The notes under the pieces are model-generated. The model saw nothing but the letters and a program-made list of their open reading frames with translations, made no database searches and had not been told where the DNA came from. The translations under genes were made by a program, and so were the position numbers. From NCBI GenBank assembly GCA_015143295.1, contig CM026551.1, positions 47,542,034-47,606,033 of the forward strand: DNA of 64,000 bases, read 5' to 3'. The stretch is from Tetracentron sinense. Lineage: Eukaryota > Streptophyta > Magnoliopsida > Trochodendrales > Trochodendraceae. Positions within the stretch are counted from its first letter, which is position 1. Every line of letters starts with the position of its first letter. Shown piece by piece: positions 2,600 through 31,800 of the stretch.

Positions 2600-3015
2600 T
2601 AAGTACTTCTTTGCCTCCAGTGTCTATTGATGAATCTAATATTCCTATTGCTCTCAGGAAGGGTAAGAGGTCTTGTACTCAACATCCTATTGCTAACTAC
2701 ATCCTACAAAGCGTTGTCTCCGTCTTACAAGTCGTTTGTGTCTTCACTATCATCCATTTCCATTCATATTATGTCACCAATGTTTTAAACCAACCAATGT
2801 GGAGAGAAGCAATGATAGAAGAGATGAATGCGCTCGACAAAAATAATACTTGGGTATAGATCTTCCTCAAGAAAAAACTCTTATGGGGTGTAAATGGGTA
2901 TTCACAGCCAAATACGACTACACTCAGACTTATGGAATTGACTATCAGGAGACATTTGCCCCAGTAGCAAAGATGAATTCAATTCATATAATCTACGGTA
3001 TGCAAACTTCACCTC
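2600..3015 (+). pseudogene. Ty1/copia reverse transcriptase, N-terminal part
   Basis: The translation resembles the start of copia reverse transcriptase: NQPMWREAMIEEMNALDKNN, then a frameshift, then GCKWVFTAKYDYTQ and GIDYQETFAPVAKMNSI. These are standard copia RT landmarks. The coding sense stops at about 3012, where the continuation of the gene appears on the opposite strand (see the inverted segment at 3018-3730). Confidence 0.85.
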
Positions 3016-3017
3016 AG

Positions 3018-3730
3018 ATGAGTTATTCCCTGATAAAGTGATGATTTATTTCAATGTGTTTGGATCTATCGTGTAACACTGGGTTATGACCTATAATGAT
3101 TGCTGCCTTGTTGTAATAGTATAAACTCATAGGTCCTTCAACTGGAATTCCCAACTCCTGAATGAGGATCTTTAGCCACAGTAACTCACATATACCATGT
3201 GTCATTGATCGAAATTCTGCCTCTGCACGCAACCACTGCTTATTTTTTACTGCGTCATGTGACCAAATTACCTCCAACAAAAGAGATCTAGGATGTACTT
3301 TGTTTGAGATATAAAGATGCCATTAGGAGATTTAGCAACCTCTATTCCCAAGAAGTACTTAAGAACACTCAGATCCTTGATCTCAAACTCATTTGCTAGA
3401 TACTTCTTCAGTTGTTCAATCTCTGTCATATTGCTTCCTGTGGCAACTATATCATCTACATACACGATAAGAACTGTACTGTCATCCTTGGTGTGCCTCA
3501 CAAATAATGTATGATCAGCCTGACTTTGTAAGTATCAACTTCTCTTTACAACAACAATGAACCTTTCAAACCAGGCTCTAGGAGATTGCTTTATGCTATA
3601 TAACATCTTTGGCTTGCACACCTTCTTTTCACTTCTTTCAAGGTAAAATCCTAGAGGAGCCATATAAACTTCTTTCTTCAAAGTATCATGGAGAAAATCA
3701 TTTTTGACATCAAGTTGGTAAAGTGGTCAC
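3018..3730 (-). pseudogene. Inverted RT and RNase H segment of the copia element
   Basis: Read on the minus strand from 3730 down, it begins with YQLDVKNDFLHDTLKKEVYM. It continues through KPKMLYSIKQSPRAWFERF and the catalytic motif VLIVYVDDIV (near 3450-3480), then reaches the RNase H portion RAEAEFRSMTHGICELLWL and HIEINHHFIREK. This is exactly the part missing between the plus-strand RT start (ending ~3012) and the plus-strand RNase H tail (from ~3731). The middle third of pol has therefore been inverted in place. Confidence 0.85.
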
Positions 3731-3868: not shown

Positions 3869-4092
3869 TGTTGACAAGGGTATTTATGGTTTTTCATGTT
3901 ATTAGCTAGACCGTGTGTATTACGTGTACCGTATCTAATATACGTAGTACACATAAAGGTAAAAGTGTAATTCTCGTCTTTAGTAATAATATATAAAGAA
4001 AATGAGAGACATGAATTATTCATGCTCTCTAACCATAATCACTTCTCTCTTTCTCTTCTCTTTCTCTATTCTCTACCTCTTTCTACTCTGTG
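3869..4092 (+). mobile_element. Copia 3' LTR (remnant)
   Basis: It starts TGTTGACAAGG directly after the polypurine tract. It contains AATAATATATAAAG as a TATA-like stretch and a CT-rich tail (about 4030-4090), as copia LTRs commonly do. The right edge is estimated. I found no matching 5' LTR in the window, so the element is truncated on its left. Confidence 0.6.
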
Positions 4093-18684: not shown

Positions 18685-19814
18685 TCAGGGCTTGAAGGCT
18701 GAAAACACCACGACAGAGTTGTGTCCTCCGAACCCAAAAGAATTTGAAATGGCTGCAAATAATAGAGGGATATGAGTTTTTTTAGTGTTGATGATTGGAT
18801 TTCAAGAAATTCAAAAAGGAGACATGGGGTTCGGCGCCTCACCAACATTCACTTCATGCTGCTGCTTTTTATTTGCAACTGTATCGAACTCTACCGAAGG
18901 CTCTGGATTCTGCAGTTATGGAAAGAAAAATCGAACACCAAATCAGTTAGGTAAAATTATCAAACTATTTAATATCAAATTTAAAGTTTAAAAAAAACTG
19001 TAAATTTAATTGTGATGTCTATGGTTTTGACAACAGCAGTTATAAGTGCAAATTATAGTGTTGTGACGGTTTAGATAAGGGCAGAGGGAATTTCCAGTGG
19101 AGCGGTGAAATGCATAGAGATCATAAAGAACACCAACGGCAACAGCATTCTGCTGGGTGACACTGAAGAAAGCTAAAGGAGCGAATGGCATTTGATACCC
19201 ATAATATGATTAGTCCGGCATGGGCTACGTGAGCCCCTTTTAGTTTACAGGACAAATAGATGTCGGGCATTCTCGGCCCAACAAGCAAGCCAGGCAACCT
19301 ATGCTTTGACCTGCAAAAAGCACTCAGCACTCGGTTGGGATCGTCACAGATCAAAAAAGATTGCAATCAGTTTTCAAGTCAAATATAAGGAAGAGTTTTC
19401 TTATAAAAAATAATTGTAAGAAATTAGCAAAAAGAATCCAAACGGCCATTAACAGCCATTATAACCATTATTAAAGGACCTTGTAACCATTATAATGTTG
19501 AGAAACAGACAAGTTCCACCACCATTACCCCCTGCGGTCCTATTTCACCTTCATTTCATGAGTTATTATGTTATATAGCCCAAAATAAGTAGGAGAATTC
19601 TCTCAGAAGTAAAACGTACAAATTGGTTTATAGTAGGATGCAGCCACCCTGTAGTTATCGCTTTCATTGTGGCAATGGCTTCTAAACCCCCAGACGCACC
19701 GAGGCAGTGACCTATCATTGACTGAGGACAAACAAAAATTAATGCATGCAAAATATATTATTCTGTTTATGGAGAGGAAATACTACAATCTAAAACTGCT
19801 ACAATTTGGAGGCT

Positions 19815-19870
<56 letters not shown>

Positions 19871-22800
19871 ACCTTGGTCGCATTAATTTTGATTTCTGAA
19901 GTGTTCTTGAATACCTTTTTTATAGCATTCACCTCAGCTAGGTCACCAGCAATTGTCGAAGTGGCATGTGCATTTATATAGTTAACCTGGAAAAAGAAAA
20001 GGAAAATAACACACTTAAAATTTCTTTTTAGCGAGTAGAATAACCTAAGATGGAGACAAGAAGTAATCACATATCTGGGCGCTAATTCAAGGGACGAATG
20101 TCTTAAATTAAAGGGGCATTAGCATATAATTGCCATTGGCTATTGGGGACCATTTCTATATTCTCCATCTAATTGCAATCACAGCACGTGTTTCACCTTA
20201 TAAACCACACAACACCACAGCGCACCTATGAAAGTGCTGGATAAGGAGTGGAAGACTCTTTGGAGATGGGGATGCCTTTTTGAGAATACAAGAGCCTTTG
20301 CCTCAAGTTATGGCTTTGACCATAACTTAATGAGGATGGATTCCATAGAACTCTCCTTGGTTGCAGTTGTGGCTTTTGATAGAATAGAATGGTGAAATAG
20401 GATTCGTGTTGCGGATGGGCCATAGTAACAAAATTTTATGATTTTTTCAAAGAGTCCTGAATAATTCGCGATTTTTTCATCTAACGCTTAATTCACGAAG
20501 TATTCTCGATTCATTTTTTAAAAAAAATTGCGACTTTACAAAAAGTCATGAATTTAATGAATTAAATGCAAATTATTCACTTTTTATATTAAAAAAAAAA
20601 GTCCAGAACACATATGTAATATAGGAAATAAATTTGTTTATAATTTTACACAATCACTAGTCTTATTTAAAATTTTCTCATATCTTGCATAACATTTTCT
20701 CGATTTGTTTTCCCTTTTTTTACCAAATTTTTTCTGAATTTTACCCTATCCGTATGATTTCCGAACTCCGACTTGGTGACTACGGTGGACCGGGCCCTAT
20801 ATCGTTGGAATAAGGTTTTGGTGACTGATGATGATGATGATTCGTTGGACTCTTTGATGCCTGCTGAAACCGAAACTGAGGGTATTCCCTTCAGAATCCT
20901 TCATGGTACTCCCAACTAGACCTGGATTACCAAGAGAACAACCATTGAAGTTTAGCTTTATAATATCAGGAATAAGCTTCTTCCAACAAGGGCTTTATGA
21001 GATCTTGTGTTTCTGAATTGCAAACCAAAATTTCCTTCAACCAGATTCAAAAGCTGACATTCAAACCTCTTTAAATTCTATTAGGATAGAGGAACTTGGT
21101 ACATGGCAACACCAGAACGTCATCTTGGGATTTATATTGGTTGCCAATTTCTTTCCAGTCAACGACACCAATAAAAAGCAATGGGAGGAGCATCCAAAGA
21201 GTTTTTCCCCAATCCTTCAACCTTCTTGGGTGCCACCCATATTAATGTCCTCTATTTATGCCAGCAAGATCCATTCAGGATTTGAGGGTTCTAATCGTTG
21301 TTTCATGTGCCTTCAAGAGGAAGAATCGGTGGACCATATGCTTATGCAATGCCCTTCCACGAGCGAGATTTAGGGGTTCTCTCTCTCGAGTAGAAGTGGA
21401 TTGGGTCTTCCCTTATTCCTTTCAAAACTTCTTATCTTGATGGTTTGTGGTAAGTGCGGATGGGGCACGAAATGCGATTTGGTCGGTTCTTCTAGAAATC
21501 ACAACTTGGTCACTCTGGAAAGAGAGAAACAAGAGTCTTTGAGGACTCCCCGTCTTCTACGCATATCCGCTCTCAAATCCGCTTACTTGTTCTTGAATGG
21601 TGCTCCATTAGGCATGATGGGGAGGATGTGGGTGTGATGTTGGGTTGAGTCTTGTGCTTATTCGATCCCTTCAGTAGCCAAGGGGTCCCCTCATATGTTT
21701 TTAGTTTCTCTTTTTCTCTGTTTTTTTCCTTGTCGAATTTACACACTTGTAAACTCCATCTAGCTGTAATGGTTCGCCTTTTGCTTTAGTTTTATACTAG
21801 TGAGAGCGGAACGTGAAAGAGAGGAAGGGGAGAGAGACTGGGATGAGGGACCCTAGTGAGGGCATTTCGAAAACAAAATACGGAATATTTTGGGTATAGA
21901 AACTTGAAGGACATTTTGGATAAAAATAATTGTGAGACCAGTTGCTTATTGAAATACGATGTTGGGACATTTTAAGAACCAAAAAGCTTTAGACATTTTG
22001 GGTATAACAAAGAAAGTTGGCGGGTGGGGCCTTGAGGAGACCGTCTTTCAGAGCATTTTGCCTAGAGAGCAAGGAGACCGGTTACGCCACTGAGTTCGCC
22101 ATGTGTCCCTTTTAACACTACTTAACTGTGATTAAGATTCACCCACCCCGAGGGTTCACTCACTTATCCTTGGCTTTTAGAAAAAATTATGAAAAAAATA
22201 TTAATCCTAGAAGTTAGTGAATTTTAACCCAGGTTTAAAAGAAATTAAATTTTTTTTTTTCTTAAAACCAAGAATAAGTGGGTGAACCCTAGGGGTCGGT
22301 AAATCTGAACCACTGTTGGAGTCATGTTAGTCCCTTGAGGTTGCCATGTCTCTTTTGACACCCCATAACTTTGGTTAAGATTCATCTACCCCTAGAGTTC
22401 ACCCACCTATCCTTGGTTTTTGGAAAAAAAATATTAATTTGTTTTAAACCTAGTTAAAATTCACTAATTCCTAGGGTTAAATTCTTTTTAAATATATTTT
22501 TTTGCTAAAATCCAAAGATAAGTGGGTGAACCTTAGGGGTGAGGGAATCTTAACCACTATTCAAGAATGTTAAAAGGGACACATGGCGACCTCAGTAGCA
22601 TAACCGGACTCAAGGAGTCTGGTTATAACCATAGGGTATAGATAGATAGATAGATGAGGGGTAGTATGGGAATTAAAAAAATATTCAATAAGTATGTCTT
22701 ATATAATGATTATGATAAGGGTAGTTTGGGAATTTTGCAAAATTGCATCTACGTTTTCAAGGGCTCACTATATATAAGATAAGAAAGAGAAGAAGAAGAG

Positions 22801-25800
22801 ATAAGAACAAAGGGTAGTTTTGGAATTTCAAAAGATTCAATCAACGTTTTGAACATGGGGCATCCTCTTTATATTAGTAAGATATCTTGATTATCGATAA
22901 TAAAAGAGAGAGAGAGAGATCCATTCGATGCCGAAGAGGGTAAGAACAAGGCTCCATAAGTACTAGCAATTTGGCAATGTAAAAATAGTAGTTTTACCAG
23001 ATTAAGAAAATGGGTCACATGAAACACATACTAGGAAAGAATTTTTTTTCCTAAAGGAAGATGGTACGCCATAAGGTTTTGTCATGAATCATCGGCCAGA
23101 GAAGTATAATTTTGAAGGAACTGGCATTATTCATAGCGCTTCTTTGCAGGGAAGGTGATGTCATAGTCTCCAATCAACTGAATGGAATGATTTGACAATG
23201 AAGATTTCTTCATTTTGCCAAATGCACTGCCTCTTATTGTGTAGTTCACAAGGGATATGTGAGTTTCTAGCCTTAAGAGAGTCATGGAGGATAGGTATCT
23301 CCTCATCTTTGATGCCTGTTCTGAAAGTAGGGCTATATACAATCGCCTCACCTGTCCCAGCAAAACAGTCTGACACCAAAACTTCTGGATTGAGCCAATC
23401 TGGAGAAGAGCAGGGAAGTCATCTGCGAGGCTAGACCTCCCCACACCAAACACCACTCCAGAACCTCACTCCTTGCCACATCCCACATTCCCACCCTAAA
23501 CAGACCTGCTTTAGGAATTCCTGTAAATGAAGCAAGCACCTTTCCACCACCCCCACCCGCACCCCATAGGATATATTCACTCTATCACAGTACCATTCTA
23601 AGTTAATTGGCTTAGATTTACAAGCAATAATCCCCTTCCACAAGTTTACATCTTCCACCTTGAAGGCTTGAACCTCCAACACCATTTTCCTAAGAGAGCA
23701 TTGTTCAACTGCCTAAAACTTCTTCTACCAATCCCATGTGCCTCTAGGGACATACAGTCTTCTAATCCACTAAATGAAACAAGTCTCTTCATAACTGCCT
23801 TGCCAACGAAAATTCCTTTGAAGCTTCTCTTGGTGCTCTTCTACCGACACTGGTTACATGAACATCAATAAGTGGGAAAATTGGACAAGGCACTTTTGAT
23901 GAGAGCAATTAGTCCGCCGTATGATATGAGTCTCTTCTTCCACAAGGCCAGCTTCCTTTGAACTGTTCTAAGACCAGATTTAAACAGCTTTCTATCAGTA
24001 CGAACTATGAAGAACCCAAGGGCCAGGGGAGGCCCAGGTAAGTTGCAGCTAGGGATTCCAACTTGCAACCAAGATCTATCGCCAGCACTTCCAGATTTGG
24101 GACTTCTCTCACAATGATAATTTTGCTTTTAGAGATTTAATTCTAAACCCAATCCAACATGAAGTATATGATTATATGTCTAAGAGAAAGAACTTAGTAA
24201 AGGGGATCCTTACACAAGATTAGTGTGGCATATAAGAATTGAAGGACTGAGATAAGGATTGTCCAGAGAAATGCGAAAACCTTCAATTAATACTCTTTGC
24301 TTGACCAGTTAGATGATTGGTAAGGCCTAGGTGATGATGATAAATAGAAACAACAAGATCGGATCTCCCTACCACAAACCTCTCGAGCTACTAAAGAAAA
24401 AGAAGGAAACTATTCACAAGAACTGAAAACATGGCAGTCCAGATGCAAATTCATATCAATCTTTTTCACTTGGATCCAAATACTCCCTCCAAGAAATAGT
24501 CAAGGAAAAACCACTCTATGTGGTCATATGCTTTCTCCATATCGATTTTGGATGCTAGAATACCTAGTAAGAATTTGAGTCAATGCATTCATTTGCAGTG
24601 AGAACCCCATCTAGATTGACTGCCTATGACAAAAGCCCAATTCACTTCCTTGATAAGTTATTAAGTACTTTAAAAATAATTATACATGCACTTTTAAGTA
24701 GGCTGATTGGTCAGAAATATAGATGGTCCTCAACTTCTTTGGTATGAGGCAAATAAAAATAGAATTACCATTTCTTTGTAGAAAATCATTGTCTTGAAAT
24801 TCCTTGACCATCTTCGTGAAATCCTATTTTTCCATGCTCCAACATTCCTTATGAAAAGCTAAAGAGAAGCCATCGGGACCTGAAACTTTGTCCCAGCCCT
24901 CAGGATCTCTTCCTCGCCAAAAATTTGATCCCAACCATACTTGCTAATCAACGAATATGGATTTGAATTGGATCCCTCAAGTTTAACCCTGATGCCAGAA
25001 GATGAAGAATAAAGTGATTTATAGTAGTCTATGGCCTCTTCTCTAATATCACCGTCATCCTTGATAATCTCTCCCCGTTCAGAAAGACGATAAATAGTGT
25101 TCCTCCTGAATGGGCAACTATGTGATCTTATCCCCCTCCTTCAGGCATCTAACCCTAAACTTTTGTCTCCGTCTTATTTCTTCCAAAATAAGAACCTAAC
25201 TGTAATCTCTCTCTCGAGTTCAAATCTTCTCCCTATTTTACTTTATGCTAACACCCCGTGTTTCCTGCATTTTGTCAATCCCAGATCTCTTCTAATAGTA
25301 ACCTTTTCTAGCCATTAAGTTTTTGAAGACATCCTTGTTCCAACGCTTGATTATTTTTTTCAGGGCTTTCAGTTTCTTGTAAGAGAATCGCTGGGGTTGC
25401 TAGAATCGGTGAAAGGGGCCAACATGAATCCATCCAAGAGTATAGGATTTAATTGGGTGGCAAAGCTACCTAAGACGATATCCTAAAATTGTCTTGCCCA
25501 ATCTGTGGTAACAAGAAATCGGCACAATACGAGGTTCTTTTGATAGCTGGACCAATTGAATAAGATCAATCAGCTCATCTTATGTACAAACTCAGAGAAT
25601 CTTCTCATTCTTCAGGTAATTCTGCTTCCACTTTTATTCTCGTAGGAGAATTTAACTCTGGTAAAATCTCCCTAGAAAGCATCCATCCTATCTAGATAAC
25701 TAGATCATTGGGACGAGAAGAACCTACTAGAATCAACTTAGACTGGTCTGCAATTGAGTAAAATTGCTCATATACTAAAAATTCCTACTTTATGATTTGA

Positions 25801-28800
25801 TATTAAACTGCATCTCGATCCCAAATTAGAATGATACTTCCAGCCATGCCGTTAGCGGGTAATAACACCATCCACAATGTGGATGTGACCAAATGAACGT
25901 GATAATCTTGTCGTTCACACTTTCCAACTTAGATTCTTGGAGGATATATCACCAATATAAATCTTTCATCTTCATTTTCTCCAACAATTTATGTTACATG
26001 TCAAATATTGGAGCTCCCTGGATGTCTTTGCTCTCTGATCCAAATTATCTTCTTTTCTTCCTCTTAGTCTCCCTCTCCTCCACTGTTTGGAATATATGCT
26101 TTTTTTATCGATAAGAAAAATATTAATGAAAATGAAGGAAATACAAGAAGAGTTCACAGAAAATGAACCAGTTGGGGAAAAAAAAAAAGCATTACAGGGA
26201 AAAACTAAAAAGGACAAACCTCCAACTCATGGAAAAAGATGCAAGATTGAGGTCCTCAAAACCCTCCCTAATCGAACACCACGAAAGCAATAGCTTAATG
26301 ATATATAACCATTTCTAGCGGAAGAGAAACGTTATTGAGCACCCTGATAGAACCCAGAATCAAAGACCACGTAACTGTAGCATACTTAGAAGTTAGAATA
26401 CTTCTTATGTACTGTAGCAGGGGTATTTTATACATTTCTCTTTATTAGTAGAATATATAATAAAGGAGTTAGAAAGAGATCATTAATCTCTATAATCTTT
26501 CCCTAATCTCTTTTCTTCTTCTTTCTCTTCACTTTCTAGGTTTCTCCAAAACCCTAATCCATAAAACCTTAGATCTAAACCCTAAAACCCTACCTATTCA
26601 AACCAACTTGGTATCAGAACGAAGGATCCAGTAAGGGAGTTCATCGCGGAGTTCGAGCTCTCGTATCACTGTTGACGTTTCAACACGGAGTTCGAGTTCT
26701 CATATCACTGTTGACGTCAACCGTATGGGCATTGTAGTGGCAACTGCAAATCTGGATTTCTTCACTAGGTGATAGATCATGATTTATCAAGAATTATAAT
26801 TATTTTCTAGGATTTTTTGGAGCTTGGAGATGTGTTTTTGATGAATTTCTTTGAAATTTTGAAAAAATTCAGTTTCTGGAAACTGCGTGGTGTGATAGAT
26901 TGGGAAGTTGTTGGAAGGTCAATCTGTTATTGATTGGACCGTAGGAAAATTCTTGATTGTTTGAAAAAGTGCTATGAAGAACAGAGGAGATTTGAAATCT
27001 CGCTGATGATTTCCTCCCCCTACCTTACCTTTTTTCATTGTTCATCACCATTTTTTTGTGTTCTTTGATTAAATCAGTCTCCTACACTGTTAGATGAATA
27101 TGAGAGGGTGTGGTAAGATGTTGTGGTGCTGTTTTGAATGATTGAAGCCTCTTTATTGACTCTGTTAGGTGGATATAGGGTTTTGGAAAACTAATTTTGT
27201 GTTTTTGGTGTTTGTGAAGATTGGTGGTGGTATATTTCTAGGTCTGATTTGTGTAGATCAGCCTTGTGTGAAGCTCGATGGATGAGTCAGAGGTTAGCCA
27301 ATCCTCTAGTGTCCCTGTAAATGGGGGAAGAAGTATAGAGGTGAGACTTAAAAGGGATGAGTACTCAGTGTATTTTCTTAGTTTTTTCCCCTCAATATTT
27401 CTACTCTTTTGGGATCTAATATGATGTGGTTATTTCTCTACAAAAGCACTAGGTGACGATCGGAGGTCTTTTAGCTATCATAAGGCTATTCTAGTGATTG
27501 AAAAATTGCCTTTCAAAATTGAAAGCATAGACCAGGTCAAACACCTGCCAACGATTGGAAAGTCAATGCAGGATCGTGTAAGTAAACATGCTTAGGTTCA
27601 AATTAACAATGTTCAGCTTTTGTTACCTTCATTGACTAACTGACAAGTCATATTGGGTTGTACCTTCTGAACTTGTTTGTCATGCCGATCATTCTGTGCA
27701 GGGATATGCAAAATTCAAGCTTCTTTGTTCATAGTAATGTAGCAAATTTGTGTTTTTCATGAAGGTGTGATCTTCTAGGGTATTTTGTTCTTTTTCCATG
27801 AGGGGGATTCCTTATATTACTAATTATATCCCAGTTGGAAGAGTACATGCTGAGAAATGAGGAGTGATTTCTATTCAGTTCTCCCTACTGTCCAGTCTTT
27901 TATTTATGCCAATATCACATGTTCTTCTGTCATCAAAGAATAGGCCAAGGTTAATAATTTAAATGCTAATAAACGTGAAGGTAATAAAGTAGTTTCTAAG
28001 CCTTAAGATGCCAATATAAAAGAAACAATGTAATTATTGGAAAACTTTATGCCACAAGGTATCGGAATAGCAGTTCCCAAGATGGTTTTTCTTATAATGA
28101 TCTTGAAAAGACAAATGATGCCAGTGATGTTTACATGCAGATTCATGAGATAGTGACTACTGGGAAGTTATCCAAGTTGGAGCACTTCGAGACAGATGAA
28201 AAGGTGTTTCAAGGTTTTAGAAAAAATTTCAATATTATTCGTCAATTTACACAAAGTTTTCGCTTCGTATACCGATAGAGGGCTCTTTTGCTACTTTTCC
28301 ATTTACTCCTCTTGGCTGGTATGTGAATACCATCTTTAATATGGACTTGGTTTGTTGACTGTGATCTTCACATTGGGGAATAGTTCAGGCTCTAATGTTT
28401 GTAATGATTTTTACCAAAATTTTGTATTTTATAATTTCTTTTTTGGAGCTTTGATAGTTTTTAAATGACATCTGAAGATACATTATTGGATTTTAAAGGA
28501 TCTCTGTTGTGTTTTCTAATGATTTCATCTCTCTGATGTCCTAATATTTCTTCACTTTCTTTTTGAAACTTTGCATTTTTGAACTATCATATATAATTCT
28601 CTTAATGTTCGGCACAGTTAAGATTCTTCAACTGTAGTTAGTATAATATTGTAATTCACTGACAAAAGGTCTATTAGTAAGGCCCTTTTGCTTGAGCATA
28701 GTACAGCGTGGAATGGAGGAGTTTGAAACCATACTCAGCGGCAAAAGCATGAATTTCTCTACTTGTAAATGCAGTGCCTCTGTTAGAAGTATCAGAGGTA

Positions 28801-31800
28801 AGAACTGAGCCATCAGCTGCATCAAGGGCAAAGGAAAGATGGCCTATCTGACTGATGTCATCCCTACTTCCACCCTTAGGCTCGACCTATGCCAAGTGTG
28901 AGGCTGAGAATGCCATCATTATGTTCTGGCTTCTCCATTTGATGCATCCTGATATTACTAGAAGCTATTTGTTTCTTTCCATTGCTCGAAAGACAAGGGA
29001 TGCAGTGACACAGACATGTTCTGAAGTTGGGAACACTGCGAGTGTGTATGAGTTGTGTCAGAGTATCTAGCAATTGAAGTAATGGGGTGAGTCTATACCC
29101 GCATATTCTCTTCGTAGACTCTAGGAAGAGCTGGATCACTATCAGAATTTCCCGGAAAATATACGGGTACTAAATGAAAACAGTTCAAAACAATATTCAC
29201 ATGCAAGAAGTTATGCACGAGAGTACAAAAAGAGTACCTCCTCTGGTGACACTCCACTGTCTTCAAGGCTTCTTTCGATGCATGATGAGACACCAAGTCC
29301 GTCAGCTCTAGGATCAGTCATATGATAAGCATCACAGTTAATTGCACCTCCTAAGTACTCCGCAATAATTGGTGCACCACGTTTCATTGCATGTTCCAAG
29401 CTCTCCATTACCTATCAAGAAAATCACAGATATTTTTAAACAACAAGATCTGAGACCCCATTACATAATGTAACATCCAATGTCATAAGGACTGGAGATG
29501 ATGCATTCAACAGAAAATTAGGAAAAAAAATTAATCCAAGGTGCAGTTCCAATCATGCATCACTGGAATAGTAAAAAATCAAGACCAAGAAGTGAGAACA
29601 ATAGTTATAAGACTCGCAATCTTGTGAAGCATCAACCTGACTGTTGGACGAAATAAAAAATAAAGAAACAACTCAAAACATTTAAAAGCCACAAACTTTG
29701 TAACTTCCCCATAGTTAACCGAAGGGTATCTCAGTGAAACTCCATACCAGTGATCATCTAACAAGATCTGAGACTTCATTACATAATGTAACATCCAATG
29801 TCATAAGACTGAAGATGAGGCATTCAAGAGAGGATTAGGAAAAAAAAATTAATCCGAGGTGCAGTTCCATTCATGCATCAACAGGATAGTCAAAAATCAA
29901 GACCAAGAAGTGAGAACAATAGTGATAGGGCTTGCAATCTTATGAAGCATCAACCTGATTGTTGGACAATATAAAACTTAAAGAAACAACTCAAAACATT
30001 TAAAAGTCAAAAGCTTTGTAACTTCCCATAGTTAACCGAAGGGTATTTCAATGAAACTCCATTCCAGTGATCATCTACACGATGTTGCAACTATAAATTC
30101 TATAAGGTGAGTATTTTGTTTTAGAAACTACACAATCTGATGTGATGGCCTGTTGAGCCTACTTAATTAAGTTCATAATGCTATTTTCAGCTATCTTTTC
30201 TATTCTACATCTATTTTAGCTCGTGAGATTGTAGAATGTGTCAGACTAGAGTGGCAACAGTTTAGTCTTTTAAACTATTTATTTACAATAAAATGATAAA
30301 TATGAGTGTGCAGACCATAACAGTACGGTCAACACGTCTCTTCTTTCTTCTACTCCATTCCTAGAACTAGGGCATCAATTTCTATTTTCTAGTTGGTATC
30401 AGAACGGGTAACTCTCCAAAAATCATCAGAAGCTTCAAGGTGAAAAATAAGAAGAAAAAAGGTACAGGTCTGATGCAATCAAGGGCTGATGTCATCCAAC
30501 TGTACTACTCAACAGTCGTAAAGACAGGCTCCTAAACATGGCCTCTACACAGGTGCCTCCTACGTGGTGAAAAAATTTATACGAAGAGAGAATAATTTTT
30601 GGGTATTTGTAGTCATTTTTCTGGATTTTTTTTTTTTTTGAAGGTGTTGAGACCACTGTTACAAATCTCCCAAGAAATACCCAATTTTTCCCGAGAAAAA
30701 CATTTAAAGTTTAAAACTCAGTTTTTATCGCAATATTTTAAAAATCTCGCGAGAAATATAATTTTCTCTTTTTATCAAGTATATATCGCGAGACTTAACC
30801 GATATATTAAAAATATCATGAGAAATACACAATGTTGTTGGTTTTATGAATTTATAACTTGGAGATATTTATTACTATCTTATGTAATTTCAATCTATTT
30901 TTTTAATCACTCCCGAAATTTAGGCGAAAAATACCCGAAAAAAATTCAGATTTGAAAATCTCCTGAGAAAAACTTCGGCCCATAAAAACCCGATAACGAG
31001 ATTTGTAACACTGTTGAGACCACCGAATTTAAACCCTAAAAAAACCTAATATTTGATCAATCAAAAAAGTGAGATGAACGGAGCAATATTTTCCAAGACT
31101 GAATGGTAGTTTTTATAAGTTCCAAAATTCCATAGAGATTAAAACTGGTTTCGTGAAATTATGTCGAGATTTAAGAGCGGTGATGATTTTTTCACCACTA
31201 TATTGTTGCTCCCTTGTCGTAGTTAAAGTTTTTGGGCTATGCAGCCACGACACTTTGGAAAACTGATCTGGAGTGGATCAGCTACAGTAGTAATAAGACT
31301 GATTTGTGTAAATCGACTAGTTGTTCCCTACAAGGTGTTTGTGTGCAGCTAGTGGTCCTAACGTTTCTTTCATAGACCCAAGTGTACTAGAAAGTAGAAA
31401 CTGACCTAAATCTGTAGTATGTTTGGAATCAGTGGTATCCTGGGGCTATTGCATGGTTCCTTTGGAAAGAAAGGAATGCACAGGTGTTTGATGATATATT
31501 TACCCCTCCCGCTATCCTATGTTTGAGGATTAGATACAAACTTTTATCTCAGTGCTCAATTCAGAAGGATGGTGAGGACTTGGGCCTAATCTTGTGAGGT
31601 AGAGGGCAAGTTAAGATCCTCGCTCTTGGAAACATTGTGCTTAGGGGGGTACTGTGCTTTTATTTTCATTTATTGTGCTTGAGTTTACACACTTGTGAAC
31701 TCCCATTGTATGTGCTTTCTTATTTATGATTTAGTTATGATATGAATCACATATTACAAATCAAAAATGGCTAAAACCATGTAACCAACTAAAAACTCAT

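What the first reader, a model, noticed from the sequence alone, without database searches (positions are those of the whole stretch)
27447..28203. DNA polymerase lambda gene fragment carried, with its intron, inside KAS I intron 3
Two adjacent polymerase lambda exons with intact splice sites lie between gag fragments of a copia element (27280-27345 and 28876-29085). The intron shows DNA-level capture, not reverse transcription. The neighbouring gypsy integrase fragment suggests repeated insertion or filler repair. Gene-fragment capture is usually credited to Pack-MULEs or Helitrons; here the flanks are LTR-element pieces, which is less usual. If spliced into KAS I antisense transcripts it could also yield chimeric RNA.
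Basis: partly seen in the sequence, partly recalled or inferred. Interest (0 to 1): 0.75.

Follow-up and report, generated by a model that had tools for sequence, protein, structure and literature searches.

The report
Repair-patch polymerase lambda fragment in intron
A 1.3-kb piece of this plant's own DNA polymerase lambda gene, introns included, sits inside an old, broken retrotransposon in an intron of a fatty-acid synthesis gene, most likely copied there as a patch during repair of a broken chromosome, which is a known kind of event in plants.

Summary
Window 27334-28675 is a colinear copy (97.1% over 27334-28679) of part of the same genome's polymerase lambda gene at C4:46987254-46988599, minus strand. 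It carries the last 7 nt of one exon, an intron, exon 27447-27577, a second intron, exon 28141-28203 and part of a third intron. It interrupts a copia element: the same copia relatives match on both sides, with about 89 bp between in L041. A 120-bp antisense gypsy integrase piece and a 28-nt linker follow.

The copia looks like the target, not the vehicle. It carries about 4-6 times more private change than the pol lambda copy has gained since capture (changes before insertion count too). Two donors plus a linker, overlaps of 3-5 and 4 nt at two joints, loss of about 89 bp and no second copy found fit double-strand-break repair with templated filler, described in plants (PMC7935947, PMC3445842, PMC3503983; passages read). 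A splice from gag into the first captured exon meets a stop two codons on.

Verdict: a well-resolved new example of a known process; low interest.

The parts
26390..27338 (+). Left half of a degenerate copia element: LTR part, leader, gag start codon at 27278 and first 21 codons
   Evidence: 71-77% to copia copies L041, L042, L043, L046, L047; LTR part also matches the second LTR of L041; one of four L041 pieces gave RVT_2, below its cut-off
27334..27340 (+). Last 7 nt of the preceding pol lambda exon; 3-5 nt overlap with copia at the joint
27341..27446 (+). Captured pol lambda intron (donor GTGAGA, acceptor AAAAG)
27447..27577 (+). Captured pol lambda exon (HHH_8 domain, first part)
27578..28140 (+). 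Captured pol lambda intron
28141..28203 (+). Captured pol lambda exon (HHH_8 domain, end)
28204..28675 (+). Captured part of the next pol lambda intron; the next exon (fingers domain) is not included
28672..28791 (-). Gypsy integrase piece, antisense to copia and pol lambda; shares TATT (28672-28675) with the pol lambda end
   Evidence: 92.5% to C1478:688481-688600 and C359:616103-616222, 85% over 85 bases to C6:10128113-10128198; rve domain in the source repeat
28792..28819 (.). 28-nt linker of unknown source; TCAGAGGTAAG resembles 27287-27297 (10 of 11)
   Evidence: a 26-nt pattern covering 28789-28814 occurs once in the genome with up to 2 mismatches
28820..29159 (+). Right half of the copia gag, three in-frame stops in an 86-codon stretch
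   Evidence: 74-83% to copia copies
29238..29411 (-). Beta-ketoacyl-ACP synthase exon that precedes the host intron (19987-29237)
   Evidence: borders read

Best explanation
A double-strand break occurred inside an already decayed copia element in the KAS-gene intron. About 89 bp around the break were lost. The ends were repaired with templated filler, by synthesis-dependent strand annealing or microhomology-mediated (pol theta-type) end joining: about 1.34 kb copied from the polymerase lambda gene on C4, 120 bp from a gypsy-type repeat, and a short linker. The result is a gene fragment with introns and no evident function. Shown: the donor and its borders, the split copia, the overlaps, the unequal divergences, no second copy found. 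Inferred: a break as trigger, the repair pathway, that copia was dead first, and one event rather than two.
For: Contiguous DNA-level copy with introns from one donor locus. The same copia relatives resume on the far side after about 89 bp (L041 4176 to 4266). A gypsy piece is joined directly in antisense. Overlaps are 3-5 nt at the copia/pol joint (simulated random joints reach 3 or more in 6.4%, 5 or more in 0.7%) and 4 nt at the pol/gypsy joint (4 or more in 1.3%). Copia carries more private change than the captured piece: 28 of 312 columns (leader) and 9 of 155 (gag) against 20 of 1261 derived in the window copy; Fisher 2.6e-9 and 0.0026. The gag has three in-frame stops in 86 codons. No second locus joins copia to pol lambda among the listed matches (40 of 708 candidates scored, 3 of 3). 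No direct or inverted repeat of 10 nt or more abuts both borders.
Against: No empty-site allele or related species was available; the state before insertion is inferred from other copia copies. Private copia changes include those that arose before this copy inserted, since no relative of useful length is closer than about 80%. L041 has the same stop at one of the three gag stops and another stop at the same codon as a second, so nonsense sites may predate this copy. An imperfect 11-nt direct pair (27287-27297 / 28792-28802, 10 of 11) lies 36 nt outside the left border and at the gypsy end. The gypsy piece is 7.5% from its nearest match against 2.9% for pol lambda, so it may be an older filler. 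The copia/pol overlap is only 3 nt, reached by 6.4% of random joints, unless the ancestral copia read TATAG.
Confidence: 0.83

Rival explanations
1. The copia element captured pol lambda pre-mRNA (and gypsy RNA) by abnormal template switching during reverse transcription and inserted into the intron as a chimera.
For: Pol lambda lies in the same sense as copia, as an RNA template would, and unspliced pre-mRNA would keep introns. Such switching between RNAs is described for plant LTR elements (PMC13317346, passages).
Against: The gypsy piece is antisense. The copia part is more diverged than the captured part (pre-insertion changes count too). The gag is decayed. No second copy of the chimera is listed.
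Confidence: 0.07
2. A Pack-type DNA transposon or Helitron carried the fragment in.
For: These are common carriers of gene fragments in plants (recalled; Pack-type elements also in PMC13317346 passages).
Against: No inverted or direct repeat abuts both borders; the borders lie directly in copia and in a gypsy piece. No dedicated Helitron search was made.
Confidence: 0.02
3. Two separate repair events: an older gypsy filler, then the pol lambda piece, both in the same copia.
For: Gypsy piece 92.5% and pol lambda piece 97.1% to the nearest sources.
Against: The gypsy match is a family member, not a proven donor; the two pieces are joined directly with a 4-nt overlap.
Confidence: 0.08

Closest known systems
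Gene fragments copied as filler DNA in plant double-strand-break repair (SDSA / NHEJ; Wicker et al. 2010, recalled; model cited in PMC3445842 and PMC3503983, passages)
   Same: DNA-level copy of part of a gene with introns at an unlinked site, short overlaps at joints, no element termini, more than one donor, loss of bases at the site
   Different: No transposon insertion is seen here as trigger; the acceptor is a decayed copia inside an intron
Dispersed, fragmented pseudogenes of plants (PMC7935947, passages: 13,007 pseudogenes within introns in five species)
   Same: Gene fragment in another gene's intron; that paper also invokes DSB-repair filler for dispersed ones
   Different: Here donor locus, joints and relative divergences were worked out for one case
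Genes captured by LTR retrotransposons (PMC3726574, passages: rice and sorghum)
   Same: Gene sequence between LTR-element parts
   Different: The element here is truncated, has no second LTR in the window, and seems to have decayed before capture

Membership tests
Filler-DNA gene fragment (DSB repair) | Contiguous DNA-level copy of an unlinked donor, introns kept | tested here: met
   97.1% over 1347 columns to the C4 locus
Filler-DNA gene fragment (DSB repair) | Short overlaps (microhomology) at the joints | tested here: inconclusive
   4 nt at pol/gypsy (random 1.3%); 3-5 nt at copia/pol (random 6.4% to 0.7%); the third joint has an unexplained linker
Filler-DNA gene fragment (DSB repair) | Empty site in an allele or relative | not testable with these tools
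   No relative held; the C17 KAS copy matches only from 29225 on
LTR-retrotransposon gene capture | Two LTRs and target-site duplication around the captured gene | tested here: not met
   LTR part has no second copy in the window, only a 24-base match at 4042; target-site duplication at the element's ends was not tested (looked for repeats of 40 nt or more only)
LTR-retrotransposon gene capture | Element and captured piece equally diverged | tested here: not met
   Copia 28/312 and 9/155 private changes against 20/1261; changes before insertion count too
Pack-MULE / Pack-TIR element | Terminal inverted repeats and target-site duplication at the borders | tested here: not met
   No pair of 10 nt or more abuts both borders; an imperfect 11-nt direct pair lies 36 nt off the left border; duplications under 10 nt were not searched for
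Helitron | 5' TC and 3' CTRR ends with a hairpin (recalled) | not tested
   No dedicated search; borders of the piece read TATAG and CTATT and the flanks are copia and gypsy
Processed pseudogene | Introns lost | tested here: not met
   Introns present

The most novel reading that the evidence does not exclude
A transcript from the copia LTR region could run through the captured splice sites and give RNA homologous to part of the polymerase lambda gene, feeding small-RNA control of the very gap-filling polymerase whose gene was the template. No evidence here shows any transcript.
Probability: 0.02. Interest if true: 0.5.

Novelty: new member of a known kind. Interest (0 to 1): 0.2.

Why it matters
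It is a clean example of filler repair moving a gene piece between plant chromosomes, with donor, joints and likely order of events worked out inside one genome. It also warns that a gene fragment found between LTR-element pieces need not have been carried by the element. It changes no general picture.

Tried and rejected
Mis-assembly: rejected, since 37 substitutions lie spread over 1.35 kb and fall on both branches (20 derived in window, 12 in the donor, 4 without a polB base, 1 three-way). The last of the 20 (28676) lies past the pol/gypsy joint and should be left out, giving 19 (and 36 in all). No reads were available to check the assembly directly.

Second pol lambda locus (polB, C4:47.318 Mb) as parent: rejected. 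Window and donor share 81 states against polB; polB lacks most of exon 28141-28203 and has one in-frame stop in the exon matching 27447-27577. A polB translation was one base out of frame and its stops are void; one search replaces it.

Linker: a genome-wide pattern search with 2 mismatches found only the window. Its resemblance to 27287-27297 is reached by 10 of 200 shuffled linkers, so it is weak.

KAS copy on C17 as empty site: C17:22404000-22423999 matches only from window 29225 on, so it says nothing about the intron.

Copia identity: two gag pieces gave no Pfam hit; of four L041 pieces, one gave RVT_2 below its cut-off. Rfam found nothing in the window at gathering scores.

Rows dropped: in the gag comparison L018 (half length) and L042 (other sequence inside) were left out of 8 rows; L012 and L015 were matched but not aligned, and L014, L019, L020, L022 are the same places as L047, L041, L043, L046. 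The leader comparison is given with and without L047.

A guess by size only.

Literature: searches listed 11 of 11, 15 of 72, 12 of 62, 10 of 59, 12 of 12 and 8 of 200 papers; no listed title or abstract opening names a polymerase lambda capture. Wicker et al. 2010 is not held.

Full report
What is there. The window lies at C1:47542034-47606033 of a 1.16-Gb genome. Searching 26500-29200 against that genome gave 76 matches, 40 of 708 candidates scored. The segment from 27334 matched C4:46987254-46988599 on the minus strand at 97% and a second C4 locus at 92-93%; the flanks matched copia copies at 65-83%. A search with 27400-28300 alone gave only the window and the two C4 loci (3 of 3 candidates scored). 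Local alignment gives 97.1% identity over 1347 columns, 37 mismatches and 2 gaps.

The donor. Stop-to-stop frames of C4:46971000-46999000 show exon-like stretches on the same strand before and after the copied part, including the pol lambda fingers domain next to it. A PF14792 (palm) match of 41 bits lies further along the same strand, and other stretches read like C-terminal exons (my reading, untested). So the C4 locus is a larger gene and the window holds a middle piece. The second C4 locus is a partial, broken duplicate. With it as outgroup, 20 changes are derived in the window copy and 12 in the donor over 1261 three-way columns; one of the 20 lies past the joint. Two of the window changes replace amino acids (P to L, H to R), and the donor itself carries one replacement (E to V); too few to test selection.

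The joints. On the left, copia and pol lambda overlap by TAT, or TATAG if the ancestral copia read like L046. On the right, pol lambda and the gypsy piece overlap by TATT. Simulated random joints reach 3 or more in 6.4% and 5 or more in 0.7% (copia/pol), and 4 or more in 1.3% (pol/gypsy). The gypsy piece ends at 28791 and copia resumes at about 28820; the 28 nt between are of unknown source. In L041 about 89 bp separate the two copia parts. An imperfect 11-nt direct pair, 27287-27297 and 28792-28802, is the only listed repeat with a copy near each side, and it does not abut the left border.

Order of events. Where the other copies agree, the window copia differs at 28 of 312 leader columns (41 of 475 without L047) and 9 of 155 gag columns; the captured pol lambda is changed at 20 of 1261. 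The other copia copies show private rates of 5-23% (leader) and 6-10% (gag), which suggests an old burst. The window gag has three in-frame stops in 86 codons, but L041 shares one of them and has a different stop at the codon of another. This supports, and does not prove, that copia was dead before the pol lambda piece came, because changes before insertion are counted too.

How it works. The best reading is break repair with copied filler (confidence 0.83). Plant papers describe the same kind of event: filler DNA by SDSA carrying genes (PMC3445842, passages; PMC3503983, passages), and dispersed fragmented pseudogenes explained by NHEJ-SDSA, with 13,007 pseudogenes inside introns in five species (PMC7935947, passages). 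Template switching by an LTR element (PMC13317346, passages) is less likely because the gypsy piece is antisense, the divergences differ and no other copy is listed. Genes captured by LTR elements are otherwise common in rice and sorghum (PMC3726574, passages).

Consequence. The piece lies in a 9.25-kb intron of a minus-strand beta-ketoacyl-ACP synthase gene, on the opposite strand. From the gag start codon, a splice at the captured donor into exon 27447 gives one codon and then a stop; unspliced, the frame ends after 48 codons. Nothing seen here suggests a product; expression was not testable.

Noticed in passing
L044 about 2982-3120 (C1478) and L045 (C359): The integrase frame of the best-matching gypsy repeat breaks off near the point where the window piece ends, and the bases after it (CCTTACTAATA) are shared; the source repeat looks chimeric itself.
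   Followed up: partly
L024 (C4:47.318 Mb): A partial duplicate of the pol lambda gene about 0.33 Mb from the fuller one; one in-frame stop in an exon and most of another exon missing.
   Followed up: partly
window 19050-19180: Looks like a decayed plastid 16S rRNA piece (recalled resemblance); no Rfam hit at gathering score.
   Followed up: partly
window 30654-31013: A repeat of about 360 bp, 87-91% alike at 39 other listed places (40 of 2324 candidates scored).
   Followed up: no
window 29442-30077: Tandem duplication with a spacing of about 318 bp, pieces 88-96% alike, upstream in the same KAS gene.
   Followed up: no
C17:22419306 onward: Related KAS gene copy that matches the window only from 29225 on; its downstream exons were not found in the 15 kb fetched beyond.
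   Followed up: partly
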